This document shows, in pieces, positions 31,718 through 48,958 of a stretch of DNA of 64,000 bases. The notes below the pieces were generated by a model, which was given only the letters and a program-made list of their open reading frames with translations, ran no database searches and had not been told where the DNA came from. Origin of the DNA: Gemmatimonadota bacterium (GTDB lineage Bacteria; Gemmatimonadota; Gemmatimonadetes; Longimicrobiales; Gaopeijiaceae); NCBI GenBank assembly GCA_022826005.1, contig JAJDVT010000097.1:62001-126000 (forward strand). Direction: 5' to 3'. The position numbers and the translations under genes were made by a program. Numbering within the stretch: the first letter of the stretch is position 1; the number at the start of each line of letters is the position of its first letter.

Positions 31718-31935
31718 GAGGTCACCTTTCCTCGGTACGCCGCCGCGGGTCTCACCGATCCGGTCGGAACACGATGCATCCCACACGTGTGATCCGCGTG
31801 ATGTGGAAATCGGTTGTCAGTGCAGCAGTCGACTTGCTCGCGGCGCAGGCCGTCGACCGGGCCCGCCACCTGAGCGGTGATACGTTACAGTTCGCGTGTG
31901 ATGTCGACTACCACCAGGAGGTTTGCGACGTGCCG

Positions 31936-32220
31936 ATGAAGAACCCACCCCATCCGGGCCTGTCCGTGCGCCATGATTGTCTGGAGCCGCTGGGGCTCAC
32001 CGTGACGGCGGCGGCGCAGAGGCTCGGAGTCAGCCGAAAGCAGCTTTCGGAACTGGTCAACGGCCGTTCGGGCATCTCTCCCGAAATGGCGATCCGTCTG
32101 GACAAGGCGTTCGGAGGCGGCGCGGATACCTGGTATCGCCTTCAATCGGCGTATGAGCTTGCGCAGGCCATGAAGAACGCCGACCGGATCCATGTCGAGA
32201 GGATACCGACCCCGGTTTGA
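31936..32220 (+). CDS. higA: HigA-type helix-turn-helix antitoxin
   Basis: 94 aa. The N-terminus [19 protein letters not shown] and the HTH ([26 protein letters not shown]) followed by [13 protein letters not shown] and [14 protein letters not shown] match the HigA/VapI family. HigA represses its operon and neutralises the HigB RNase. The upstream frame ends in CDVDYHQE, which resembles only the last residues of HigB (VDYH), so the toxin seems lost and higA is an orphan. GTG 31930 is an alternative start. Confidence 0.85.
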
Positions 32221-36654: not shown

Positions 36655-36683
36655 CGGGCCGGGTCGAAGCCTCTTGTGCAGTG

Positions 36684-36770
36684 CGTTCAAGGGGGGTGGG
36701 CCTCTGTATTGGGGTGGTCGGTGGGAGACTAGAGCTACACACGAGGGGGTCCTGCCGCAACCGGGGTGCG
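36684..36770 (+). repeat. cassette leader repeat, copy A
   Basis: About 87 bp that align with 44374-44459. The common blocks are TGCGTTCAA-GGGG at the start, ACTAGAG-TACAC in the middle and TGCCGCAACCGGGG at the end. Copy A lies upstream of the first Cys-rich/propeller cassette, and copy B before the decayed last cassette. It probably contains the cassette promoter or a leader RNA, though no clear -35/-10 pair was found. Confidence 0.55.
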
Positions 36771-36862
36771 GTGAAGGGTGGGTCCAGGCCTGTCAACGGT
36801 GCAGCGGCGGGCATCGGTAGTGTCCCTAACATTGGCGTGACGGGTATTCTCTGTGGCGTCCA

Positions 36863-36903
36863 AGCGCCGACGGGTCGGCACCGTACGCCGACCCGTCGGC
36901 GCT
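36863..36903. other. 17-bp perfect inverted repeat upstream of a Cys-rich gene
   Basis: Arms 36863-36879 and 36887-36903 are perfectly complementary (core GCCGACGGGTCGGC), with a 7-base loop ACCGTAC. No T tract follows, so it is not a standard intrinsic terminator. It lies about 170 bp before the start at 37075, between the cassette leader and the gene. It could be an attenuator, an mRNA-stability hairpin or the relic of a small mobile repeat. The rest of 36655-37074 shows no gene. Confidence 0.6.
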
Positions 36904-37074
36904 CCCTGGAAGGGCGGGTTGCCACCCACATATTCGCAAGTGCTTTCGTGGAAGTGTCTTACGGTTGGTCCAACAAGGTGGCACGCCAGTTGCCGTGAGA
37001 AGAGAGTACGCAACGGCGTCCCAGCGGAGACTCGCTCCGGCGGGACGCAGCATGCCTCACGAAAGGAGACCACC

Positions 37075-37623
37075 GTGGCGATCGCAAGAAAGATGTTCCT
37101 GAGCCTGGCCGCGCTGTTCCTGCTTTTCGCATCCGCGCAGCAGACCGAAGCGCAGTTTCTGGGGGAGGTGGTCTGCTGGTGGTGCATCGAGACGGAGGAC
37201 GGTCAACACGGCTTTACGATGAACGTAAGAGGTTGTGGGTCTGAAGGCGAATACCCGGATCACCCGATTCCTGCACAGTGTGTCCGCTGCGGGAAGACGT
37301 CGGAGTGCCATGAAGAGAACTGGCCCGGACCGTGCCACATCGCGTGTGGCCCCGCCGGTGATGCCGTCATGGCTCAAGCAGAACTACAGGGGGCTTTGGA
37401 AAGTGAGGACATCTCGATAGTTGCTGCGACGCTGTTGAAGGAGAGATCAGGTGTTATTGCCGAGTTCATTCCCGACGGTGGCCGCATCGACCTCCTCCTA
37501 AGCTGCGACCCCAACAAGCCGTTTCGAACCATCCCGGTGGTGCCAACACTTCGCGAAGCGCTGGTAGCCGCGCTCGACCTACATTCGTTGCAAGGGCATC
37601 CAGGGACGCTTGCGGCCTCATAG
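37075..37623 (+). CDS. secreted Cys-rich protein, cassette family member A
   Basis: 182 aa, no known family recognised. Signal peptide (LSLAALFLLFASAQQTEAQ, cleavage near residue 24). The mature part carries eight cysteines conserved in members B (42001) and C (43877): CWWC, then GCG, QCVRCG, SECHE, GPCHIACGP. A helical region GDAVMAQAELQGALES follows, then the conserved tail EFIPDGGRIDLLLSCDP and FRTIPVVPTLREAL. GTG start with AAAGGAG about 8 bases before. Paired CxxC motifs and two CH steps suggest metal binding or disulfides. The next gene is a propeller lipoprotein. Confidence 0.75.
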   Translation: MAIARKMFLSLAALFLLFASAQQTEAQFLGEVVCWWCIETEDGQHGFTMNVRGCGSEGEYPDHPIPAQCVRCGKTSECHEENWPGPCHIACGPAGDAVMAQAELQGALESEDISIVAATLLKERSGVIAEFIPDGGRIDLLLSCDPNKPFRTIPVVPTLREALVAALDLHSLQGHPGTLAAS

Positions 37624-37689
37624 CGTTTCCCAGTATGTGCAGCTACAATTGGTTAGAATCGAGTCCCCCCCTGGTTACCTGTATAGACC

Positions 37690-38934
37690 ATGTTTCGATC
37701 ACGCCCGCACCCACTACATGTTGCACCCTCGCTTGTGTTTCTTGCGCTAGCCGGGTGCGACAGAGCCGATCCGGCACCCATGCCCGCCGCTGCTACCGTC
37801 CGGGACTCGGCCGACATCCAAATCGTTGAGAACCTTGCCCCACGCTGGCGCGATGGTGGCTCGTGGACGGTCGCTCCGGATCCTACAGTTGTGATCGGCG
37901 GCTACGGGGCCGGGGGCGAAACCTCGGATTCGAGCCATCTGGTTTGGTCTGTCGCCGATGTTGCTCCGTTGTCGGACGGCAGGATAGCCGTCCTTTCCAG
38001 CAGAGAGAAAAAGCTATTCCTGTTCTGGCCCTCCGGCGGATTTGCGGGATCGATCGGGCGGGAGGGACGCGGCCCGGGAGAGTTCGGCTATCCGGAACAC
38101 CTTCAGGTCCTCCCGGGGGACACCCTCGTGGTCTGGGACTTCATGTTGGGCCCGATTGCCTACTTCGATCCTTCAGGTCAGTTGCTGCGATCCTGGCGCA
38201 TTGATGTCGGAGCCCTGTTTGCCGAGGTGCGAAAGCGACACCAGCGAGTGCCCGAACGCGTACACTTGCCGTTGGCAGATGGGTCCTTCATTGTCCAAGT
38301 GTACCTCAATCCGGGTGGCTTTAGTCCGCCACGCGGGGTGCGGTACAGGTCACCGGTGGAGTTCATCACGATTGACTCCACCTACACTGCGCGATCGTTG
38401 GGTCGATGGGAGGAGAGGGAGTATGTGTACCAGGAGGGGATCCAACCGTCGGTCCCTTACGCATTCGGCGTGCAGTTGGCGGTGGGGAGTAGCCCGCAAT
38501 CGGTCTACATCAGCAGCGGCGACCGATATGAAGTGCAACAATTCTCCGCAACCGGATACCTCACCCGGATAGTCCGCCGCAAAGCGGAACCGGTCCCCAT
38601 CACGGCCGCCGACATCGAACAATGGAAGGATGGATTCTCACTCCCCTGGAATTGGGACGCCTGGGACGAACTGATGGCCGAGCTCCCGCCACGAGAGTTC
38701 CGCCCGCCGATCGTGGGGCTCCTCGTGGACTCGGAAGGCCATCTGTGGGTAGCGGACAGGAAGGACCGAACAGACAGCGAGTGGAGCGTTTTCGACCCGG
38801 CCGGACACTGGCTCGGCACGCTGAAAGTGCCTCTGCAGCGCGTCGAATGGATCGGAGAGGATCTGATTCTCGGGATCAACGAGGATCCGGATACGGGAGT
38901 GGAGGTGGTGGAGGGGTATCGGCTGAGCCGCTAG
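37690..38934 (+). CDS. 6-bladed beta-propeller lipoprotein, cassette 1
   Basis: 414 aa. Lipobox VFLALAGC (Cys about residue 23), then RDSADIQIVENLAP, the hallmark GRGPGEFGYPEHLQVLPGD near residue 127, and the C-terminal block WSVFDPAGHWLGTLKVPLQRVEW with NEDPDTGVEVVEGYRLSR. It lies 66 bp after the Cys-rich gene and is closely similar to the propellers at 39084 and 42569. The family may act as a surface scaffold or binding protein, but no ligand is known. Confidence 0.85.
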   Translation: MFRSRPHPLHVAPSLVFLALAGCDRADPAPMPAAATVRDSADIQIVENLAPRWRDGGSWTVAPDPTVVIGGYGAGGETSDSSHLVWSVADVAPLSDGRIAVLSSREKKLFLFWPSGGFAGSIGREGRGPGEFGYPEHLQVLPGDTLVVWDFMLGPIAYFDPSGQLLRSWRIDVGALFAEVRKRHQRVPERVHLPLADGSFIVQVYLNPGGFSPPRGVRYRSPVEFITIDSTYTARSLGRWEEREYVYQEGIQPSVPYAFGVQLAVGSSPQSVYISSGDRYEVQQFSATGYLTRIVRRKAEPVPITAADIEQWKDGFSLPWNWDAWDELMAELPPREFRPPIVGLLVDSEGHLWVADRKDRTDSEWSVFDPAGHWLGTLKVPLQRVEWIGEDLILGINEDPDTGVEVVEGYRLSR

Positions 38935-38981
38935 GGCGAGGGCCCCTTCAGGTTTCGGAAGCTCAATCCAGGGAGACAGAC

Positions 38982-39077
38982 ATGGCGATCGCAAGAAGAA
39001 ACTATAACGTTCGTACGATCGACACTCGTGAGCAGCCTCCCAAGAGAAGACCCCTTGGAGTAGCACGAGTGGAATGA
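38982..39077 (+). pseudogene. leftover 5' end of a Cys-rich cassette gene
   Basis: The RBS region (GGGAGA) and first codons (MAIARR) match the starts at 37075, 42001 and 43877 at nucleotide level, including ATGGCGATCGCAAGAAG. After six codons the frame is unrelated and stops after 31 codons, just before the next propeller start. The cysteine-containing body has been deleted, leaving a short open frame that could still couple translation to the propeller gene. Confidence 0.65.
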
Positions 39078-39083
39078 AATGAG

Positions 39084-40343
39084 ATGAGATCATCCATAAC
39101 TCGCACTCCGACGCAGATACCGGCGCTTGCCGCGTTGGCGTCCCTGGCCGCCGCGGCCGCCTGTGATCAAGCGCATTCACCGCCCAAGACGCCGACCGTC
39201 GCCCTGCGGGACTCCGCCGGAATCCAGATCGTCGAGAACCACGCCCCGGAATGGAATGAAGGCGAGCGATGGACGGTCGCAGCGGAGCCGTCGGTCGTCG
39301 TCGGCGGTTACCGGGGGGCGGACGAACCCGCGGACTCGAGTCACCTGGTCTGGGCCATCGGGGGCTTGGCTCCCCTTTCGGACGGCCGGATAGCCGTACT
39401 TTCCAGCGAAGAAAAGAAGCTGTTTCTCTTCGAGCCCTCGGGCGCGTTCGCGGGCTCAATTGGGCGCGAGGGACGCGGGCCCGGCGAGTTCTGGCATCCG
39501 CAACACCTGCAGGTCCTTCCGGGCGACACGCTCGTGGTATGGGACTACATGTTCGGCGCGATCGCCTACTTCAACGCGTCGGGGGAGCTGCTCAGGGACT
39601 GGCGGGTCGATGTCGGTAGACTGATGACCTCGCTTGAGAAGTGGAACAGGCGTTTGCCCGAGAGCATTCAGTTGCCCTCGACGGGTGGCTCCTTCTTTGT
39701 GGCAGCCCACCTTGCACCCCTTGGTTTCTACCCACCCTCGCCGTACAGGTCACCGATCGAGTACTACAGGATCGATTCACTCTACGTGGCTCACCCGTTC
39801 GGTCGGTGGGAGGAGCGTGAGCACATCTACGAGCCGGGAGTCCCCGCGTCAGTACCATTCGCTCCGGAAGCGCATCTGGCGGTGGGCGGAGACCCGATCT
39901 CGGTGTACATCAGCAACGGCGACGACTACGAAGTCCACCAATTCTCCGACACCGGGACACTCCGCAGAATCATCCGGCGGAACGCGGATCCGATTCCAAT
40001 AACGGCCAGCGACGTCGAGAGGTGGAAGGAAGGTTGGGAGCGCCGGAACGCTCAGTACAGCTGGGAGCCATGGGACGCTGTGATGGCGGAGCTCCCACCC
40101 CGCGAGTTCCGGCCGGCCGTCGCAGGGCTTCTCGTGGACTCGAAGGGCTACCTTTGGGTGGCGGACCGAAAAGACGCCACGACAAGCGAATGGAGCGTAT
40201 TCGACGCGACCGGGCGCTGGCTGGGCACTGTGGAGCTCCCACTGCAGCGCGTCGAGTGGATCGGGGAGGATCTGATTCTCGGAGTGAACGAGGATCCCGA
40301 TACCGGAGTGGAGGTTGTCGAGGGGTATCGGCTGAGCCGGTAG
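39084..40343 (+). CDS. 6-bladed beta-propeller lipoprotein, cassette 2
   Basis: 419 aa. Lipobox ALASLAAAAAC (Cys about residue 28), RDSAGIQIVENHAPEW, hallmark GRGPGEFWHPQHLQVLPGD, and the C-terminal DRKDATTSEWSVFDATGRWLG block. It is closely related to the cassette 1 and 3 propellers, with a near-identical last 20 codons. Its own Cys-rich partner is reduced to a 31-codon remnant just upstream, so the propeller has outlived its partner. Confidence 0.85.
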   Translation: MRSSITRTPTQIPALAALASLAAAAACDQAHSPPKTPTVALRDSAGIQIVENHAPEWNEGERWTVAAEPSVVVGGYRGADEPADSSHLVWAIGGLAPLSDGRIAVLSSEEKKLFLFEPSGAFAGSIGREGRGPGEFWHPQHLQVLPGDTLVVWDYMFGAIAYFNASGELLRDWRVDVGRLMTSLEKWNRRLPESIQLPSTGGSFFVAAHLAPLGFYPPSPYRSPIEYYRIDSLYVAHPFGRWEEREHIYEPGVPASVPFAPEAHLAVGGDPISVYISNGDDYEVHQFSDTGTLRRIIRRNADPIPITASDVERWKEGWERRNAQYSWEPWDAVMAELPPREFRPAVAGLLVDSKGYLWVADRKDATTSEWSVFDATGRWLGTVELPLQRVEWIGEDLILGVNEDPDTGVEVVEGYRLSR

Positions 40344-40465
40344 GATGGTGTAGTCGTCCGACCCCTCGGAAGCAAGTTGGGCCTGGCCTGCTTGGGGCGA
40401 GGGCGACTCGCGGACGGTTGTCGCGGACACCACACCAGCCAGTCGCACGAGCGGACCCGTGGCGC

Positions 40466-41726
40466 TTAACCGGCACGCCGGTCCAGCCTGTAACCCTCCA
40501 CAGTCTCCACATCCGTGTCGGGGTCGCGCTTCACGCCCACGATGAGATCCCTTCCCAGCCAGGTGATGCGCGACAACGGCACCTTGAGCGTCCCCAGCCA
40601 GTGTCCATCGGGATTGAAGATGCTCCACTCGCTCTCCTCGGGGTCCAGCCGGTTTGCGACCCACAGGTTGTCGTCGGTGTCCGTGAGCAGTCCGGCGACA
40701 GCGGGGCGGAAGGCCATTGGCGTATTCCCGGCCATCGCGCGATCCCACCCTTGCCAATCCACTCGCTGCCTCGCGGACACCGCCACCTTCCATGCCTCGA
40801 CTTCCTCGGGCAGGATGGGGATCGGCTCCACAGCCATGTGCCGGATGATTCGGCGAAGGACACCCTGCGGGGAGAACTGGTGAATCTCGTATCGGTCCCC
40901 GGGACTGATGTAGACGGACAGGGAGCCTCTCGCGGCCGCCGCCCAGGATTCCGTCCGAAAGGGCAGAACGGGAGGGATGATGGGGCGGACGAACAGCAGC
41001 TCGGTATCAGCCCACCAACCGCCGAAGGAATGGGCGTTGTAGGCGGGGTCGATCCTCATGAATTGTGTGGGCCGTCTGTATAGCTCCCCCTCCGCCGGGG
41101 GTTGCCAATCGCGGTCACCCACCTTGACCAGGAACGACCCGTCGCGAAGCGGCAGATGTACCGTTTCGGGAGGCTGCCGGTTGTCCGTTCGTGTTGTGGC
41201 AAACACCGCACCCAGGTCGATGCTCCGCTCCCGCAGAAGGGCCCCGGATGGATCGAAGTAGCTGACACGACCGAACATGTAGTCCCAGACGACGATGGTG
41301 TCTCCCGGAAGCACCTGGAGGTGCTGAGGCGCCGAGAATTCGCCGGGGCCTCGCCCTCTGCGCCCGAACGATGCGGCCATGGCGCCCGACGTCTCGAAGA
41401 CCAGCACCGATGCTTCTCCCTTGGAAAGCACCGCCACTCTGCCGTCCGAAAGAGGCGCGGCACCCCCGACCTCCCACACCAGATGCGCGACGTCGTCAAC
41501 CGCCGCGGCCGCCCCGCGATACCCTCCGATCACAAACGCCGGTTCGGGGTCCACGGCCCAGAACCCGGAATCCCGCCCGAAGGCATGATTCTCGACGATC
41601 TCGATGTCAGCCGAGTCCCGCATCGTCACTGTGGGGGACCGGTCTTCGGCCGCGGGGGGGGGCACACGTTGTCGACATGGCGAGGACCGGCACCACAACG
41701 AGCAGACGCTCAATTGGTCGACACAC
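40466..41726 (-). pseudogene. 6-bladed beta-propeller lipoprotein, frame-shifted at a C9 run (possibly phase-variable)
   Basis: From GTG 41726, with GGAGG about 8 bases upstream, the frame encodes a lipoprotein signal MCRPIERLLVVVPVLAMSTTC. Directly after this Cys lies a run of nine C (minus strand of 41654-41662). The propeller body (RDSADIEIVENHAF, GRGPGEFSAPQHLQVLPGD, DPDTDVETVEGYRL) is in another frame. Removing one C restores a 419-aa lipoprotein, the length of its paralogs. As it stands, translation from 41726 ends early, and any body translated from a nearby TTG would lack export. The body has no other defect, which favours recent or reversible slippage. Confidence 0.75.
41654..41662. 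repeat. mononucleotide tract G9 (C9 in the gene)
   Basis: A run of nine identical bases directly after the lipobox Cys codon of the 40466-41726 gene. Such tracts are slippage hot spots and are used as on/off switches in phase-variable surface genes. C8 or C11 would be in frame, so the assembled C9 is the off state. Confidence 0.7.
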
Positions 41727-42000
41727 TGTTGGCACCTCCGGGAATCGAGGCGGGACCGGGAAACGGTGGTTGAGTGGAATCTACAGGAGAGATGCCTGAG
41801 TCGCTGTCGCGGCCGACTCAGTACGAACCCTCAGTTCCAGCTTGGCCCGTGCTTCCGGCGGTACAGGGATGGTTCGGAACGCCGTGGTGCGCAACAACGC
41901 CGTGCTGAAGCGCCTGGCGCTGCCGGCGATGGAAGTTGCGAGAGGTGCCTCAGCCCCCTACCTTCCCCTCAACCCGGAAGTTCATGAATAAGGCGGGGTC

Positions 42001-42549
42001 ATGGCGATCGCAAAGAAGCTGCTTTTGTTCCCGGTTGCACTGTTCATGGTTCTGATGGGCAGTGCCGAACTGACGGCACAGGGCGGTGAGGAAGACGAAG
42101 GGGGCCTGACCTGCATGTGGTGCAAGGAGGGTGTTGGCTGGTTCGGTGAGACAACACACGGATTCCTGCTGGGTGGAGACCTGTGTGGCTGGGTAGGCAG
42201 CGGCGAGGGCAATCAGTGTGCGCGGTGCGGGGGCACTTCTACTTGCCACCACGTCTATTGGACTGGCGAATGCCACATTGCCTGTGGTCCGGAAGGTGAT
42301 GCCATGGCGGCTCTGACGGAAATCCAGCAAGCTCTGGCGGGAGACGACGCGACCGTAGTTGCGTCGGTCTTGTTGCGTGAGAGATCCGATGTGCACATCG
42401 AATTCATCCCGGAGGGTGGCCGCATCGATCTGATGCTTCCTTGTGATCTTACCCAGACGTTCCGCACTATCCCAGTCGTGCCCGCACTGCGCGAAGCACT
42501 GGAAGACCACTTGCAAGCGCATGCGGGAAAAGCAGCACCCGAGCCATAG
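42001..42549 (+). CDS. secreted Cys-rich protein, cassette family member B
   Basis: 182 aa. Signal peptide LLLFPVALFMVLMGSAELTAQ (cleavage near residue 24). The eight conserved cysteines appear as CMWC, DLCG, QCARCG, STCHH, GECHIACGP. The tail VHIEFIPEGGRIDLMLPCD and FRTIPVVPALREALE is shared with members A and C. It is the best intact example, with full length and ATG start. The propeller gene follows 19 bp after its stop. The 274 bp upstream (41727-42000) show no other gene. Confidence 0.75.
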   Translation: MAIAKKLLLFPVALFMVLMGSAELTAQGGEEDEGGLTCMWCKEGVGWFGETTHGFLLGGDLCGWVGSGEGNQCARCGGTSTCHHVYWTGECHIACGPEGDAMAALTEIQQALAGDDATVVASVLLRERSDVHIEFIPEGGRIDLMLPCDLTQTFRTIPVVPALREALEDHLQAHAGKAAPEP

Positions 42550-42568
42550 CTCAGCGTTTGCACCAACG

Positions 42569-43828
42569 ATGACCGAATCGAAATCGTGGGGGTCGTGGCG
42601 TTTCCTGTTCCCAATGGCCGTGTTTGTGGCCATGTGGGCGTGCGGTCGTCCCGAGACCGCAGGGCGGTCACCCGCCGTCACCATCCAGGACTCGGCCGGC
42701 ATCCAGATCGTCGAGAGCAATGCCCCTCAGTGGAACGAGGGCACCGCGTGGACGGTCGCGGCGGAGCCCGAAATCGTCATCGGGGGCTACAGGGGCGCGG
42801 GCCAACCCCCTGATTCGAGTCACCTGGTATGGGACATCAGGGACGTTGTGCCCCTCTCGGACGGTCGGGTTGCCATGCTATCCCGCGGGGAGAAGAAGGT
42901 GCTTGTCTTCGAGTCCTCGGGGGTGTTCTTCACCTCGATCGGTCGCGTGGGACGCGGTCCGGGTGAGTTCAGCAACCCGGAACACCTTCAGGTCCTCCCG
43001 GGCGATACTCTTGTGGTGTGGGATTTCATGCTCGGTCCGGTGGCCTACTTCGATCCATCCGGCGAGCTGCTGCGGGACTGGCGGATTGATGTCGGCGCGC
43101 TGTTCGCAGCAACGCGCAAGCCGAACCAGATTCCACCCGAGAGTGTGTACCTGCCCCTTGCGGACGGGTCATTCATCGTGGAAGTCGGCCTCGTACCAGG
43201 CGACTTCATCCCACCCTTCGGCGACGTTTACCGCGTACCGGTAGAGTTCCTCAGGATTGATTCCACCTACGCCGCTCTATCGTTGGGCCGGTGGGAGGAA
43301 AGGGAAATGATCTACTTGCAGGGACCCGGTCCTCCGATCGTCCCTTTCCCCTTCGGAGTGCAGCTGGCGGCGGGGGGAACCCCAACCGCGGTTTACATAA
43401 GCAACACCGACCGATACGAAGTCCACCGGTACTCCACCACAGGTGTGCTTTCCAGGATAGTCAGGCGTAGGGCAGATCCAATCCCCATCACAACCGAGGA
43501 GGTCCAGGAATGGAAGGACGGATACCCCACAAGCCAGGATTGGAGGACCTGGGATCGGGCAATGGACGAGCTGCCTCCGCGAGAATTCAGGCCACCGATC
43601 GTCGGGCTTCTCCTGGATTCCCTGGGCTACCTGTGGGTCAAGGACAGCTACAGCCTGGACCGTTCAGGAAGTGAATGGAGCGTATTCGATCCGGCCGGCC
43701 ACTGGCTGGGGACGCTGGAGATACCTTTGGGGCGCGTGGAGTGGATTGGAGAGAATCTGATTCTGGGAGTCAACCAGGATCCGGATACCGGGGTCCAGGT
43801 GGTGGAGGGGTTTCGGCTGAGCCGTTAG
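42569..43828 (+). CDS. 6-bladed beta-propeller lipoprotein, cassette 3
   Basis: 419 aa. Lipobox PMAVFVAMWAC (Cys about residue 23), QDSAGIQIVESNAPQW, hallmark GRGPGEFSNPEHLQVLPGD near residue 128, and the C-terminal NQDPDTGVQVVEGFRLSR. ATG 42569 was chosen because it gives the signal peptide. A longer frame extends upstream into the Cys-rich gene but has no support. Its stop codon lies within an inverted repeat (43814-43849) before the next Cys-rich gene. Confidence 0.85.
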   Translation: MTESKSWGSWRFLFPMAVFVAMWACGRPETAGRSPAVTIQDSAGIQIVESNAPQWNEGTAWTVAAEPEIVIGGYRGAGQPPDSSHLVWDIRDVVPLSDGRVAMLSRGEKKVLVFESSGVFFTSIGRVGRGPGEFSNPEHLQVLPGDTLVVWDFMLGPVAYFDPSGELLRDWRIDVGALFAATRKPNQIPPESVYLPLADGSFIVEVGLVPGDFIPPFGDVYRVPVEFLRIDSTYAALSLGRWEEREMIYLQGPGPPIVPFPFGVQLAAGGTPTAVYISNTDRYEVHRYSTTGVLSRIVRRRADPIPITTEEVQEWKDGYPTSQDWRTWDRAMDELPPREFRPPIVGLLLDSLGYLWVKDSYSLDRSGSEWSVFDPAGHWLGTLEIPLGRVEWIGENLILGVNQDPDTGVQVVEGFRLSR

Positions 43829-43849
43829 GGCGGGAGGACGGCTCAGCCG
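43814..43849. other. 12-bp inverted repeat spanning the propeller stop codon
   Basis: CGGCTGAGCCGT (43814-43825) and ACGGCTCAGCCG (43838-43849) are perfectly complementary, with a 12-base loop. The left arm includes the last codons of the propeller gene. The hairpin would sit between the propeller and the next Cys-rich gene and might reduce read-through. There is no T tract. Equivalent second arms are not seen after the propellers ending at 38934 and 40343. Confidence 0.55.
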
Positions 43850-43876
43850 TTCGCAAGTTCATCCAAGGAGGCAAAG

Positions 43877-44374
43877 ATGGCGATCGGAAGAAGAATGTAC
43901 GTGTTCGTGGCGGTGCCATTCCTGTTTCTGGCGGCGAGCGGGTCGGTCGAGGCACAGAGCGGGGAGGTGACCTGCTGGTGGTGCGCCGAGGCGGGGGAAG
44001 GAGAGGAAATCCGTCACGGATTCACTTTGGGTGGGGAGCTTTGTGGGCTCGAAGGAAGACTTGATGACCACCCAGGTTCCACCCAGTGTGTCCGGTGCGG
44101 CTGGAAATCAGAATGTCACTACGAATTCCTGGAGGGTGAGTGCCACAGAGCCTGTGGTCCCACCGGTGACGCGGTTGCCGCCCTGACGGAAATCCAGCAA
44201 GCCCTGGAAACCGGCGATATTGCAGTAGTCGCGTCGGCACTGTCCAAGAAGAGAACCGGTGTGTCGGTCGAGTTCATACCGGAAGGAGGTCGCATCGATC
44301 TTCTTCTTCCCTGTGATCCCCACAAGCCATATCACGTAATGTCGGCTTTACAATGCGACCGGTGGTTCTCCTGA
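43877..44374 (+). CDS. secreted Cys-rich protein, cassette family member C (3'-truncated)
   Basis: 165 aa. Signal peptide (VFVAVPFLFLAASGSVEAQS) and all eight conserved cysteines (CWWC, ELCG, QCVRCG, SECHY, GECHRACGP) are present, as is EFIPEGGRIDLLLPCDPHKP. The remaining family tail (FRTIPVVP-LREAL) is replaced by about 14 unrelated residues. The break coincides with a TGTCGGCTTTACA motif at 44338-44352. The RBS AAGGAGG precedes the ATG. The product may still fold because the Cys part is complete. Confidence 0.65.
   Translation: MAIGRRMYVFVAVPFLFLAASGSVEAQSGEVTCWWCAEAGEGEEIRHGFTLGGELCGLEGRLDDHPGSTQCVRCGWKSECHYEFLEGECHRACGPTGDAVAALTEIQQALETGDIAVVASALSKKRTGVSVEFIPEGGRIDLLLPCDPHKPYHVMSALQCDRWFS
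44338..44352. repeat. IS-end-like motif at the Cys-rich gene break
   Basis: ATGTCGGCTTTACA lies exactly where the third Cys-rich gene loses homology with its paralogs. It matches the blocks at 35112-35150 and, less closely, 1640-1682 and 50701-50728. Confidence 0.4.
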
Positions 44375-44459
44375 AATGCGTTCAAAGGGGATTCCCTCCG
44401 CATCGGGTGACTGTGTGGACACTAGAGGTACACGGGAGGGAATGGTGCCGCAACCGGGG
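44374..44459 (+). repeat. cassette leader repeat, copy B
   Basis: Aligns with 36684-36770 over its whole length (TGCGTTCAA, ACTAGAG, TGCCGCAACCGGGG blocks in the same order and spacing). No intact cassette follows; only a propeller tail fragment remains at 44860-44965. Between them (44460-44860) no supported gene was seen. Confidence 0.55.
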
Positions 44460-44859
44460 CTGATGACGGAGTGACGGAGGCCAGACGCGTTATCTTCCGG
44501 TGAGTGAGTTTCCTTACGGTGGAGTAGCCGATGCAATACCCCTCTGAGACGGTGCGACCCCACGACGAGACGGTTGGCGATCCGATCGGGGTAAAGCGTA
44601 CCAGGCGGCAGGTGACCTGGAGTTTACGGTCGGCGACTGTCTGTTCACCAACAGGCCCACGAAGCATGGCAGCGACAGGTTCAGATTGGCCGAACTGGCC
44701 GACCGCAACTGTACCGCACCGCCTATCGTGGAACTCGTGGATTTCGAGGTGAGACACCGGTCGATGCCGATGACTTGTTCGTTGGCCGATGTGAGAGATA
44801 CCGGGGACGAGACGGGGGACCCACCGCCACCGACGCGTACGTACAATTGCTCCTGGCGG

Positions 44860-44965
44860 ACGGGGATCCGGGAGGTCGCCAGTTTTTCGGACGGCTACCT
44901 ATGGGTCGCGGACAGAGTGGATCGCAACGCCAGCGAGTGGAGTGTCTTTGACCCCACGGGACGGT
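44860..44965 (+). pseudogene. propeller C-terminal fragment
   Basis: A short frame contains SDGYLWVADRVDRNASEW followed by SVFDPTGR, which matches the C-terminal region of the 37690, 39084 and 42569 propellers. Nothing upstream or downstream continues the gene. It is the last remnant of a cassette and is cut off just before the convergent ATPase gene. Confidence 0.7.
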
Positions 44966-44980
44966 GCCACCCTCACCCGC

Positions 44981-46207
44981 TCACCCCCACAGCGCCCCAA
45001 TCGGCACCGCGAACAGTCCGTCGCCGAACGCGGTCGTGTGATCGCCGTCGTAGAGGAGGACCCCGATCCGGAACCGCCTCCCCGCCACGCGCCGGAGCCG
45101 GCGCAGGCCGGTGAAGTCCGCGAAGCGAAGCGAGGCCGCCGCCTTGACCCCGACCCCGTAACACCAACCCCGTGCGGTCTCCATCACGATGTCCACCTCG
45201 ACCTTGTCCTTGTCGCGGTAGTGGTGGAAGGTCAAGGGCTCCTCGGCCCAGAGCGCCTGCTTCCTCAACTCGTTGTAGACGAACGATTCCAGGAGCGGGC
45301 CGAGCAGGACAGGACTGCCGAGCAGCCTCTCTCGCGTGATGCCGCGAAGCGCGCACATCATGCCGGTGTCGACCCCGTGCATCTTCGGCGTCTTGACCAG
45401 CCGCGTGAACTCGCCGGCGTGCCATGCGGAGATGCGCTCCACGAGGAAGAGCTGCTCCAGAAGCGCCAGGTACTTGCCCGCCGTGAGGCGGTTCAGGCCC
45501 AGTCTGCCGCCGAGGTCGGTCAGATTGACCAGCTGACCCGAGAGGATGGCGGCCAGGCCGAGCAGCCTGGTCACGCCTTCCGTGTTGGCGATCCCGGGCA
45601 GGTCGCTCAGATCCCGCTGAATGAGGGTGTTGACATACTGCCGGTACCAGGCGCGCGTCCGCCGTTCGCTCGCCCGCAGCAGAGGTTCGGGGAAGCACCC
45701 GGTCACAATCCGCTGCACCAGATGTTCCCTCACGCGCACCTCGCCAGCCACCGGCGCTTCACCCTGGAGCAGACTTGCGAGGAAGGTCGGCTCCCGGCCC
45801 TCGATTTCGCATTCGGACAACGACATCAACCGCACCGCCTCCATCCTTCCGACCAGCGCACCGGACACCTTCGGCCGCAGGAACGCATTCGCCGACCCGG
45901 TGAGCAGGAAGCGGCCGGGGATCCGGTTCTCGTCCACCGCCTGCTTGATGGCGAGGAGAGTCTCGGGAACGCGCTGCACCTCGTCGATGGCGACCCTCCC
46001 TGGCGGAAGATTGCGGATGAAGCCGACGGGATCGGCACTGGCCACCACCGCCTGAGCCATGTCGTCAAGGGTGATGTACTCCCAATCGCCGTCGATCAGA
46101 TCCCTGACCAGGGTCGTCTTTCCCACCTGCCGGGCACCCATGATGAAGACGACGGGCGTGTCGGCCAGGGCTTCTCGCACGAGGCGGGCGGTGAATCGCG
46201 GGAACAT
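44981..46207 (-). CDS. AAA+ ATPase with DUF4143 C-terminal domain
   Basis: 408 aa. Walker A MGARQVGKTTL (residues about 23-33), Walker B VAIDEVQRVP, sensor LLTGSANAFLRPKVSGALVGRM. The winged-helix/DUF4143 half contains YVNTLIQRDLSDL, LGLNRLTAGKYLALLEQLFLVERI and the late EVDIVMETARGWCYGVGVKAAAS. In the family the end often keeps a nuclease-like E-x-K; here Gly replaces the Glu, so that site is probably lost. These ATPases are frequent accessory genes of unclear role. Three 22-23-bp repeats lie upstream. Confidence 0.85.
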   Translation of the reverse strand: MFPRFTARLVREALADTPVVFIMGARQVGKTTLVRDLIDGDWEYITLDDMAQAVVASADPVGFIRNLPPGRVAIDEVQRVPETLLAIKQAVDENRIPGRFLLTGSANAFLRPKVSGALVGRMEAVRLMSLSECEIEGREPTFLASLLQGEAPVAGEVRVREHLVQRIVTGCFPEPLLRASERRTRAWYRQYVNTLIQRDLSDLPGIANTEGVTRLLGLAAILSGQLVNLTDLGGRLGLNRLTAGKYLALLEQLFLVERISAWHAGEFTRLVKTPKMHGVDTGMMCALRGITRERLLGSPVLLGPLLESFVYNELRKQALWAEEPLTFHHYRDKDKVEVDIVMETARGWCYGVGVKAAASLRFADFTGLRRLRRVAGRRFRIGVLLYDGDHTTAFGDGLFAVPIGALWG

Positions 46208-46277
46208 GACGGTGAAATCATCTGCCGAGAGGGACGTTTCACAGGAAACCGGTTTTCGGCTGATTGTCAATCGTAAC

Positions 46278-46345
46278 AGCGTCCAATCGTTATCGGAAGA
46301 GCGTCCAATTGTCGATTGAGAGAGCGTCCGATCGTTATTGGTGTC
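46278..46345. repeat. three imperfect 22-23-bp tandem repeats
   Basis: AGCGTCC begins at 46278, 46300 and 46323, each followed by (A/G)AT(C/T)GT and a variable end (TATCGG, CGATTG, TATTGG). They lie 70-140 bp upstream of the ATPase start on the minus strand and could be operator sites. Between 46208 and 46551 no gene was seen; the rest of that region holds the vapC-module promoter. Confidence 0.55.
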
Positions 46346-46410
46346 GTGTGCGGGTTCGCTGTGGAGTGGCATGGCCGATCAGCCGAGCACAGACAGCCGA
46401 GCTGGCCGCG

Positions 46411-46472: not shown

Positions 46473-46551
46473 CCGGATTGTGAAATTCGCCGGACGTCTG
46501 CCCGGAAACCCGCTGCCAGGCGCCCGGAAGCACCGAATGGAGAGTCCAAAC

Positions 46552-46842
46552 ATGACCGCATGGAAGCTGCAGGACGCGAAGAACCGTTTCAGCGAGGTGG
46601 TGCGAGAAGCGGTGGCCGGCTACCCGCAGCATGTGACCCGGCGGGGGAAGCCGGCTGTCGTGGTCCTTGCGACGGGAGAATACGAACGCCTCAGCCGCCT
46701 TGATGCCGCGAACGCATCCACATTCGCGGAGGTCTTGCTGGCGATCCCGCAGGACGACCGTGAGTTCGAACGACGCGGTCCGCAGCTGCGGCCTGTCGAA
46801 TTCGGCGGGGGGTACGGCGCTTCGGCGAATCCGGAGGGTTAG
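46552..46842 (+). CDS. Phd/YefM-type antitoxin
   Basis: 96 aa. Core MTAWKLQDAKNRFSEVVREA followed by YPQHVTRRGKPAVVVLATGEYERL is the standard Phd/YefM fold that binds operator DNA. The C-terminus would bind the toxin. The start at 46552 matches the family; ATG 46537 is an alternative. It ends one base before the VapC GTG, with GGAGGG at its end serving as the VapC ribosome-binding site. Confidence 0.88.
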   Translation: MTAWKLQDAKNRFSEVVREAVAGYPQHVTRRGKPAVVVLATGEYERLSRLDAANASTFAEVLLAIPQDDREFERRGPQLRPVEFGGGYGASANPEG

Positions 46843-46843
46843 C

Positions 46844-47296
46844 GTGTTCCTCATCGACACCGACGTTCTCTCCGCGCTCCGGAGGCGCGAGCGGAATCCG
46901 GAGGTTGCCCGCTGGCTCGCCGGACAGCGGACCTCGGACCTGTACCTGAGTGTCGTCTCGATCGGGGAAATCGAGCGGGGACTCGCCGGGGTCGAGTGCA
47001 GGGATCCCGCTTTCGCGGCCCGGTTGGAAGAGTGGCTGGATGCTCTCCTGCGGCTCTACCGGGACCGCATTCTGCCGATCGACCTGTCTGCCGCCAGGCG
47101 GTGGGGCCGGCTATCGGCGGACATCGGCCACGCGGGGGCCGATCTGTTGATCGCGGCCACGGCGCTGAAACACGGATTGACGGTCGTCACGCGCAACACC
47201 CGGCACTTCGCCGCGGCGGGCGTTCCGGTACTCGACCCGTCCGCACCGGCTTCACCGTCGGCAACGGACTCACCGTCAGGACAGGGTTTACCGTAG
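46844..47296 (+). CDS. VapC-type PIN-domain toxin
   Basis: 150 aa. PIN motif residues: Asp in LIDTDVLSALRR, Glu in SIGEIERGL, Asp in GADLLIAATALKHG, and the TRNTRHFAAAGV end. The last 20 residues (Ser/Pro/Thr-rich, ATDSPSGQG) exceed the usual family length and are probably a non-conserved tail. It is the toxin partner of the preceding Phd-type antitoxin and a probable RNase. Confidence 0.88.
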   Translation: MFLIDTDVLSALRRRERNPEVARWLAGQRTSDLYLSVVSIGEIERGLAGVECRDPAFAARLEEWLDALLRLYRDRILPIDLSAARRWGRLSADIGHAGADLLIAATALKHGLTVVTRNTRHFAAAGVPVLDPSAPASPSATDSPSGQGLP

Positions 47297-47317: not shown

Positions 47318-48451
47318 TCATGAATCCGGCGTTTTTCCCAGGCGGGTGGCGACCCAGAAGAAGAGGATCGCGGTAAAGGCCAGCGCGAGCACCGTCCCGA
47401 GCCGTTCCCCCGCGTCGACTCCCAGATACCAGGCCGCGCACAGGATGGTCACGCAGGAACACAGCACCAGCGGCCGGGCGTCCCTGGCCAGCCCGTACCC
47501 GAGCCCACAAGCGCCCGCCCCGGCCAGCACCGCCGCCGCCCCCAGTGGCGGCATTTCAAACACCTCGAGCGTGGTCCCGAAACCGAGCGGGATGGCGAGC
47601 AGGACCGATGCCGCAAGGTGATAGCCATAGCGGGGGTTCCGCAGCGCCGCCGGTGCCCGGTGGATTCCCCACAGAGCCAGCGCCGTGACCACCACCAGCC
47701 AGGCGTCCAGGGCCAGCAGGGCGTTGTCGTCTAGTTCGAGGGGCCCGACCGCCGTCATGCCGGCCATCGGATAGCCCGCGTAGAGGCTGACCGCGAAGGC
47801 GTAGAGCGCTGGGCGCGAGACGGACTCTGTGCGACCGGCGTGTAGCAGCAGGCCGAGCACCGCCAGCGTCGCAACCAGTACGCCGTCGAGGATCCAGATG
47901 ATGACGTCGGCGTCCAGATCGAAGGCGCGGAAGAGAAACGCCGCCAGGAAGACGTAGCCAAGAGCCGCGGAAACCGCGGGCATGACCGGGTTGCGTCGCA
48001 CGAAGAAGGGAATGGTAGCGGCCGGAGTGGCCAGTGCGAGCAGGCCGACAGCGACGCCCCCCGCCGTCGTGTTGTCCCAGGCCTCCATGGAGTACATGAA
48101 GGCCAGGAGGAGCAGGATCAGCCCGCTGGTCTGGAGCGCGTAGGTCACCGGCACAAAGCGCCGCGCGGCCTCGAGACGCATCCCCAGCAGCAGGGTCGCG
48201 ACCCCCGCACCGGCAATCACGCACGTGCGCGTCCCGGGTCCCAGAACGGGCCACGTCCAGGCGAAGAAGGTGCTTGCGGCGATTATCAGCAGAACGGCGG
48301 CTGTCCCCGAGACCGCAAACTGAAGGAACCGGCGACGGTCCGGCCGCAGGCGGCTGGCGTGCGCGGTGCGCAGTCGTTCCGCCAACTCGTCGGAGATCAA
48401 CCCGCTGTCCCGCCACTCCTCAAGCGCGGAGTCGATATCGGATTTACTCAT
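47318..48451 (-). CDS. polytopic membrane protein, DUF2157/DUF4401-like
   Basis: 377 aa. A short cytoplasmic helix-turn region (MSKSDIDSALEEWRDSGLISDELAERL) is followed by about ten to twelve hydrophobic segments from residue 45 to the end (for example FAVSGTAAVLLIIAASTFFA, SGLILLLLAFMYS). The pattern of a dimer-like N-terminal segment plus many transmembrane helices resembles DUF2157-type proteins of unknown role. ATG 48451 gives this N-terminus directly. Confidence 0.7.
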   Translation of the reverse strand: MSKSDIDSALEEWRDSGLISDELAERLRTAHASRLRPDRRRFLQFAVSGTAAVLLIIAASTFFAWTWPVLGPGTRTCVIAGAGVATLLLGMRLEAARRFVPVTYALQTSGLILLLLAFMYSMEAWDNTTAGGVAVGLLALATPAATIPFFVRRNPVMPAVSAALGYVFLAAFLFRAFDLDADVIIWILDGVLVATLAVLGLLLHAGRTESVSRPALYAFAVSLYAGYPMAGMTAVGPLELDDNALLALDAWLVVVTALALWGIHRAPAALRNPRYGYHLAASVLLAIPLGFGTTLEVFEMPPLGAAAVLAGAGACGLGYGLARDARPLVLCSCVTILCAAWYLGVDAGERLGTVLALAFTAILFFWVATRLGKTPDS

Positions 48452-48574
48452 TCTGGCTGCCCACCCCTGGCTGGGAATGTCCAGCCTTGCGTTCGCACTG
48501 CGGACCCCTAATCGAATCAAATGTGTCCCGTTTCGCCATTGATCCGCCCCCGGCCTCGGCCCATCCTTCATGGC

Positions 48575-48958
48575 ATGAAGACTCCGGAGGCAGAGACCCG
48601 CCGCGCGCTGGCCAGGCTGCGCAGGGCGCTCGAGAAGGCGAAGCGCGAGGTGCGGGGGCTCCGCCAGGGGTTGGATGAGTCCGAGGCGGACGGCTATCCC
48701 GGGGACGACTACGCCGAAATGGAAGGACATCTCGACGCGGTGACGGAGCTCGTGAACCGCGAGCAGGCGCGCCAGCAGGCGAAGATCCTGAGGGCTGGCG
48801 GAATCGGTCCCGGGCGGTTGCAGCGTTCCGCATTGCAGCGCTCGGGGTCGCACGGCTCGGGATCGCGGGGCGATGGATCACGCGGCGCTCGCCCGCAAGG
48901 TTCCGCGGAGCCCGTCTTGCGGGCCGAAGGGGATGGGGAGGGAGGGCGGCGATCGTGA
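48575..48958 (+). CDS. small coiled-coil protein with Gly/Ser-rich tail
   Basis: 127 aa. Residues 1-75 are strongly charged and likely a coiled coil (RRALARLRRALEKAKREVRGL and VTELVNREQARQQAKIL). The tail is Gly/Ser/Arg-rich and comes from a short DNA repeat (GGATCGCGG-like units). No family was recognised. The stop overlaps the following amidohydrolase GTG (GTGA), so it could be a leader gene of that operon. The tail may not be conserved. Confidence 0.45.
   Translation: MKTPEAETRRALARLRRALEKAKREVRGLRQGLDESEADGYPGDDYAEMEGHLDAVTELVNREQARQQAKILRAGGIGPGRLQRSALQRSGSHGSGSRGDGSRGARPQGSAEPVLRAEGDGEGGRRS

What the first reader, a model, noticed from the sequence alone, without database searches (positions are those of the whole stretch)
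36684..44965. Tandem two-gene cassette: secreted 8-Cys protein plus propeller lipoprotein
A Cys-rich exported protein of about 180 aa (37075, 42001, 43877, and a leader-only remnant at 38982) directly precedes a propeller lipoprotein of about 415 aa (37690, 42569, 39084, relic 44860). Eight cysteines (CxWC, CG, QCxRCG, CH, CHxACGP) and the EFIP-GGRIDL tail are invariant. The fixed order and short spacing argue that the two proteins work together, for example as a disulfide- or metal-stabilised ligand and its surface scaffold. I do not recognise the Cys-rich family.
Basis: partly seen in the sequence, partly recalled or inferred. Interest (0 to 1): 0.8.

Follow-up and report, generated by a model that had tools for sequence, protein, structure and literature searches.

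The report
Exported Cys-rich protein paired with propeller lipoprotein
A little-known group of bacteria (Gemmatimonadota) carries a fast-changing pair of neighbouring genes, one for a small exported cysteine-rich protein with no known relatives and one for a propeller-shaped lipoprotein, and the two are gained, copied and altered together, which suggests they form one cell-surface recognition unit.

Summary
The window has three exported Cys-rich genes (37075, 42001, 43877), two of them directly followed by a six-bladed NHL-type propeller lipoprotein, plus decayed copies. The Cys family matches nothing in Pfam, NCBIfam, PADLOC or the PDB. It is confined to 7 genomes: 6 of 23 in the window's genus and 1 other in its family. 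Of its 22 members, 19 are directly followed by a same-strand propeller, and two of the three exceptions are visibly damaged. Cys and propeller distances correlate (Mantel r 0.90), and both genes are under purifying selection (dN/dS 0.16 and 0.18), so the pair is inherited as a unit. The array sits in a variable slot: flanks are conserved, several relatives have an empty or nearly empty slot, and cassette dS is about 1.1-1.3 against 0.2-0.45 for most flank genes. Propellers persist after the Cys gene is lost (at least five decayed copies); an intact Cys gene without a downstream propeller is rare. Every intact Cys protein has an odd number of cysteines. Best reading: a disulfide-stapled soluble partner of a surface propeller, used in recognition or competition. 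Toxin-immunity is the main rival. No interface was predicted, and function is inferred.

The parts
37075..37623 (+). Cys-rich exported protein 1 (182 aa, GTG start; signal peptide ending ..TEA|Q; 9 Cys in the mature part)
   Evidence: dN/dS 0.16 against the nearest relative
37690..38934 (+). Propeller lipoprotein 1 (414 aa; lipobox LAGC; only one Cys)
   Evidence: PF17170 1.9e-9; NHL-type propeller in the model, Z 19.4 to Brat NHL; Cys position
38982..39077 (+). Leader-only remnant of a Cys-rich gene (MAIARR...), Cys domain deleted
   Evidence: translation and RBS context, repeat D8
39084..40343 (+). Propeller lipoprotein 2, without a Cys partner; kept as an ortholog in G008 (83% identical)
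   Evidence: PF17170 6.1e-10; dS 0.40, dN/dS 0.24 against G008; G008 locus
40466..41713 (-). Propeller of the same subfamily, without a full Cys partner
   Evidence: A3 alignment and profile
41793..41918 (-). Relic of a Cys-gene C-terminal tail upstream of the 40466-41713 propeller
   Evidence: profile match 148-175 of 179 in L003
42001..42549 (+). Cys-rich exported protein 3 (182 aa, 9 Cys in the mature part)
   Evidence: C-terminal domain modelled with high confidence
42569..43828 (+). Propeller lipoprotein 3 (419 aa), 19 nt after the Cys gene
   Evidence: PF17170 1.2e-8
43877..44374 (+). Cys-rich protein 4 (165 aa), 3' truncated at the array end
   Evidence: tail derived from the flank intergenic sequence
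44794..44979 (+). Relic of a propeller gene
   Evidence: profile match in L002; 94% identical over 81 nt to a G022 propeller
36680..36766 (.). Left copy of a direct repeat flanking the array
44335..44465 (.). Right copy of the flanking repeat; single copy in G020 and G008

Best explanation
This is a two-gene cassette. Gene 1 makes a Sec-exported protein of about 140-165 residues after cleavage, with an N-terminal module of eight conserved Cys (C-x2-C, H-x-F, C, C-x2-C-G, CH, CH-x2-C-G), probably stapled by disulfides, and a C-terminal helix-helix-strand-strand-strand-helix domain. Gene 2 makes a six-bladed NHL-type propeller anchored by its N-terminal lipidated Cys. SHOWN: the pair is real, under purifying selection, found almost only as a pair, and duplicated and diverging as a unit at a variable chromosomal slot; propellers persist after the Cys gene is lost, while an intact Cys gene without a downstream propeller is rare. 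INFERRED: the soluble Cys-rich protein docks on the lipid-anchored propeller in the envelope or on the cell surface, the odd cysteine making an intermolecular disulfide or a free thiol, and the pair works in cell-surface recognition (between strains or with a host), which would keep divergent alleles of the cassette at one locus.
For: 19 of 22 members are directly followed by a same-strand propeller, in several different chromosomal settings and in a second genus; two of the three exceptions are damaged (window copy 4 truncated; IS21-type transposase genes follow the G018 copy). Distance matrices correlate at r = 0.90, 0 of 20,000 permutations. dN and dS of the closest pair match for the two genes (Cys 0.207/1.26, propeller 0.197/1.10). 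At the same locus most flank genes have dS 0.2-0.45 while cassette genes have about 1.1-1.3. Several genus members have an empty or nearly empty slot. Propellers lost their Cys gene at least five times (window 39084 and 40466, G020 C56, G018 C74, G022 C37), and the orphan at 39084 is kept in G008 at dN/dS 0.24. Window propellers carry no Cys but the lipobox one; intact Cys proteins have 9 or 11 Cys. Surface propeller lipoproteins that capture ligands are established in Bacteroides (BtuG, PMC6143338; XusB, PMC13142918).
Against: No direct evidence of contact: a single-chain model of the pair gave pTM 0.62 with the Cys module still below pLDDT 60. dN/dS is low throughout, with no signal of positive selection. 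Most of the many propellers in the genome have no such partner. Mantel correlation is also expected if the genes are merely co-inherited. Neither surface exposure nor disulfides were measured.
Confidence: 0.42

Rival explanations
1. Toxin and immunity: the Cys-rich protein is an exported antibacterial protein and the propeller lipoprotein protects the producer; propellers without a Cys gene are orphan immunity genes.
For: Order (small exported gene first, lipoprotein second), tandem arrays with decay of the Cys gene but retention of the propeller, a variable slot next to a Phd/PIN toxin-antitoxin pair and an AAA_14/DUF4143 ATPase, divergent alleles at one locus, and a constant leader with diverse mature parts.
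Against: No toxin or defence model matches. Propellers belong to a very large general family in the genome. dN/dS is about 0.2 throughout, and the Cys protein has no known killing or pore-forming domain.
Confidence: 0.25
2. Nutrient or metal capture: the Cys/His module binds a metal or cofactor outside the cell and the propeller is its docking lipoprotein, as siderophores dock on XusB.
For: CxxC and CH motifs like zinc knuckles; an odd cysteine; propeller lipoproteins that capture B12 or siderophores exist in Bacteroides (PMC6143338, PMC13142918).
Against: Two of the three conserved His are lost in the G135 C66 member while its Cys stay; no zinc-finger family matches (best E 0.18). Presence of a TonB transporter next to the cassette was not tested.
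Confidence: 0.12
3. The two proteins have separate jobs and are neighbours only because the cassette moves and duplicates as one DNA piece.
For: The array lies in a variable slot and is flanked by a direct repeat that is single in G020 and G008; co-inheritance alone gives correlated trees.
Against: The Cys gene is almost never found without a propeller although propellers live without it; the pair also occurs in another genus, once with a propeller of a different subfamily (L029).
Confidence: 0.15

Closest known systems
PF17170 / NHL-type six-bladed beta-propeller proteins (BF0058, PDB 4raa; Brat NHL, PDB 1q7f)
   Same: Window propellers match PF17170 above its cut-off and the model aligns with Brat NHL at Z 19.4, rmsd 3.4 A over 258 residues.
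   Different: Bacterial lipoproteins with a Cys-rich gene directly upstream; no known function.
NVEALA small exported proteins (PF14055) of Bacteroidota, recalled as neighbours of six-bladed propeller lipoproteins
   Same: Works-like resemblance only: a small exported Cys-containing protein beside a propeller gene (from memory, not tested here).
   Different: No sequence match; PF14055 is absent from 21 related genomes, and these proteins are about twice as long with a folded C-terminal domain.
BtuG and XusB surface propeller lipoproteins of Bacteroides
   Same: Lipid-anchored propellers; BtuG2 and XusB bind ligands at the cell surface (PMC6143338, PMC13142918).
   Different: Seven blades, and encoded with TonB-dependent transporters; no Cys-rich partner.
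NHL-repeat 'eukaryotic-like' proteins reported as enriched in sponge metagenomes
   Same: NHL-type propellers in large numbers; enrichment is stated in PMC9944714.
   Different: That literature concerns NHL repeats in general; no exported Cys-rich partner was found in what was read.

Membership tests
PF17170 six-bladed propeller | Profile match above the curated cut-off of 22.9 bits | tested here: met
   37.6, 39.2 and 35.0 bits
PF17170 six-bladed propeller | NHL-like propeller fold | tested here: met
   model of 37690 as part of a single-chain model; Brat NHL Z 19.4, BF0058 Z 15.3
Bacterial lipoprotein | Lipobox Cys after a hydrophobic N-terminal stretch | tested here: met
   invariant Cys in five window propellers; canonical LAGC only in 37690, weaker boxes in 39084 and 42569
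NVEALA (PF14055) | Match to the Pfam model | tested here: not met
   no match in window proteins or 20 family members at E<=1; none in 21 genomes
NVEALA (PF14055) | Adjacency to propeller lipoproteins in Bacteroidota | not tested
   recalled only; no suitable genome collection was left
Toxin-immunity pair | Toxicity of the first gene, neutralised by the second | not testable with these tools
   needs expression; no PADLOC match is not decisive
Zinc-finger domain | Match to a known zinc-finger family | tested here: inconclusive
   only zf-AtTam37 at E 0.18 in one member
TonB-linked capture lipoprotein (BtuG/XusB type) | Encoded with a TonB-dependent transporter | not tested
   neighbours were not scanned for TonB receptors

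The most novel reading that the evidence does not exclude
A previously undescribed two-component recognition or competition system: a constant-leader, variable-body exported Cys-rich protein (toxin or ligand) with a cognate NHL-propeller lipoprotein (immunity protein or receptor), kept as divergent alleles and orphan receptors at a chromosomal hotspot in one Gemmatimonadota genus.
Probability: 0.3. Interest if true: 0.75.

Novelty: new variant of a known kind. Interest (0 to 1): 0.55.

Why it matters
Propeller lipoproteins are very numerous in this genome and have no known role here. A dedicated soluble partner with an allele-like history gives a first concrete handle on what a propeller of this group binds, and it is simple to test with two small genes. 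If it is toxin-immunity or self-recognition, it would be a new protein type in that field.

Tried and rejected
Pfam, NCBIfam and PADLOC scans of the Cys proteins: no match; isolated hits to YjgF_endoribonc (E 7e-4, one member, below cut-off) and CATASP (E 1e-3, two members) were judged chance. PDB sequence and fold searches of the Cys protein: nothing significant (best VIA Z 5.0 for the C-terminal domain against GspE); the Cys module itself was not modelled well enough to be tested. Plasmid, phage and IMG/VR searches: no relatives. Searching the Cys module alone over 150 phylum genomes gave only the known members plus marginal hits, most of them with stop codons in the match. A first large single-chain alignment was discarded because the Cys rows were misaligned. 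The codon-based gene caller written here missed the Cys genes and was replaced by profile searches. The paper library holds nothing on NVEALA.
Full report
OBSERVATION. Translation confirms three Cys-rich ORFs and three plus-strand propellers at the stated places. The three Cys proteins share about 60 invariant positions, among them nine Cys. The propellers match PF17170 above its cut-off; the Cys proteins match nothing. The 38982 leader remnant and the propeller relic near 44.8-45.0 kb are real.

EXTENT OF THE FAMILY. The window lies in a 4.85 Mb draft genome (G000) with seven Cys-family matches. Searches found the family in 6 of 23 genomes of the genus and in one genome of another genus of the same family (G135), with nothing convincing in 395 genomes of the phylum, 121 of the family, or 150 searched with the Cys module alone; in the phylum search only eight candidates per genome were scored, so weak relatives may be missed. 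Two relatives carry public names: MAGs of Gemmatimonadota (RHO3_bin_73 and jk18x27bins.35). The name RHO3 suggests a sponge source, but this was not verified. No relatives were seen in plasmids, phages or IMG/VR.

PAIRING. Twenty-two full, near-full or truncated members were counted (G000 7, G022 5, G018 3, G020 3, G135 2, G012 1, G021 1). Nineteen are followed on the same strand by a propeller within about 200 nt. The exceptions are window copy 4 (truncated, with a propeller relic further on), a G018 copy followed by IS21-type transposase genes, and a G022 copy with the propeller upstream. In G135 one member adjoins a propeller of a distant subfamily (L029). For the 15 pairs analysed, pairwise distances of Cys proteins and their propellers correlate at r = 0.90 (0.88 in the genus alone; 0 of 20,000 permutations in each).

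SELECTION AND THE LOCUS. Cassette 1 and its nearest relative in G022 have dN/dS 0.16 (Cys) and 0.18 (propeller), with similar dS, about 1.26 and 1.10. At the same locus most flanking genes have dS 0.2-0.45. Thus the cassettes are not simple orthologs of each other; they look like old alleles or replaced copies in a conserved setting. Both flanks are present in nearly all genus genomes. In G002, G015, G004 and others they are separated by a few hundred bases; some carry only the Phd/PIN pair; G020, 96% identical at the left flank, has no cassette; G008 has one propeller without a Cys gene; G003 has two propellers; G022 has two cassettes. A repeat of roughly 90-130 bp lies on both sides of the window array and is single in G020 and G008, consistent with insertion, or with loss by recombination between the repeats.

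ASYMMETRY. Propellers 39084 and 40466 in the window, and others in G020, G018 and G022, keep only a leader or a tail of a Cys gene, and those placed in the tree nest among Cys-linked propellers. Propeller 39084 has an ortholog in G008 with dS 0.40 and dN/dS 0.24, so it is kept without a Cys partner. Loss of the propeller with the Cys gene intact is rare.

ANATOMY. All eight Cys of the N-terminal module are kept in members that have the region (one is shifted by one residue in G135 C66). Total Cys in intact mature proteins is 9, or 11 in one member with a gained pair: always odd. The two tandem G018 members that lost the tail Cys gained one in the N-terminal module, so the total stays 9 (probably one event). 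Propellers 1-3 of the window have no Cys beyond the lipobox, so a disulfide between partners is unlikely there; inference: an intermolecular bond between Cys proteins, a free thiol, or a bound cofactor. The first 18 codons of the Cys genes are unusually conserved at third positions: 78% identical against 39% in the mature part, higher in 44 of 45 pairs, leaving out two divergent leaders (68.5% against 38% with them in, higher in 58 of 66 pairs); window propeller leaders show no such effect. This points to recombination at the leader or to a constraint on the mRNA start.

STRUCTURE. AlphaFold2 on 20 sequences gives a confident C-terminal domain (helices 73-86 and 90-98, strands 105-109, 114-118 and 126-131, helix 134-150; most 10-residue blocks above 90) and a poorly defined Cys module. 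No significant PDB match was found. Reading the three in-frame TAG stops between 37075 and 37690 as Gly gave a single chain for a crude docking test: both domains folded, pTM was 0.62, and the Cys module stayed poorly defined, so there is no evidence for or against an interface. The propeller part matches NHL domains.

INTERPRETATION. Shown: a real, co-inherited, lineage-restricted cassette at a variable locus, with the Cys gene dependent on the propeller but not the reverse (as judged by which gene survives alone). Inferred: the Cys protein is a soluble, disulfide-stapled partner of the anchored propeller, working in surface recognition (0.42). Toxin-immunity (0.25) explains the asymmetry and the variable slot about as well but lacks any known toxic domain. 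Co-inheritance without joint function (0.15) and metal or nutrient capture (0.12) are less likely.

KNOWN KINDS. The propeller is a member of PF17170 and NHL-like. The Cys family is not a member of any family tested. The pair works like other exported-partner plus surface-propeller arrangements, but membership in NVEALA was tested by profile and not met. Novelty: a new variant of a known kind.

Noticed in passing
G000 genome; The propeller profile gives 170 matches in this one genome, a very large paralogous family, about 20 of them close to the window subfamily.
   Followed up: partly
window 36680-36766 and 44335-44465: A direct repeat flanks the cassette array; relatives G020 and G008 have one copy.
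   Followed up: partly
Cys genes, first 18 codons (window 37075, 42001, 43877 and relatives): Synonymous positions of the leader are far more conserved than those of the mature part.
   Followed up: partly
A4 alignment, G018 members L113: Loss of the tail Cys is matched by gain of a Cys in the N-terminal module; all intact members have an odd number of Cys.
   Followed up: yes
L055 about 2.5-3.0 kb, L081 about 0.6-0.9 kb, L071 minus strand, L121 minus strand: Other propeller genes have other small exported Cys-rich ORFs directly upstream; the L055 one resembles the C-terminal half of this family.
   Followed up: partly
window 44981-46372 (-), 46480-47296 (+): An AAA_14/DUF4143 ATPase and a Phd/PIN toxin-antitoxin pair share the variable slot; the pair is present in several genomes without the cassette.
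   Followed up: partly
window 31930-32220 (+): A small HTH_3 protein, HigA-like antitoxin type, upstream of the slot.
   Followed up: no
window 47318-48853 (-): The open frame gives dN/dS above 1 in the analysed frame against three relatives, so the reading frame or gene call there is probably wrong.
   Followed up: no
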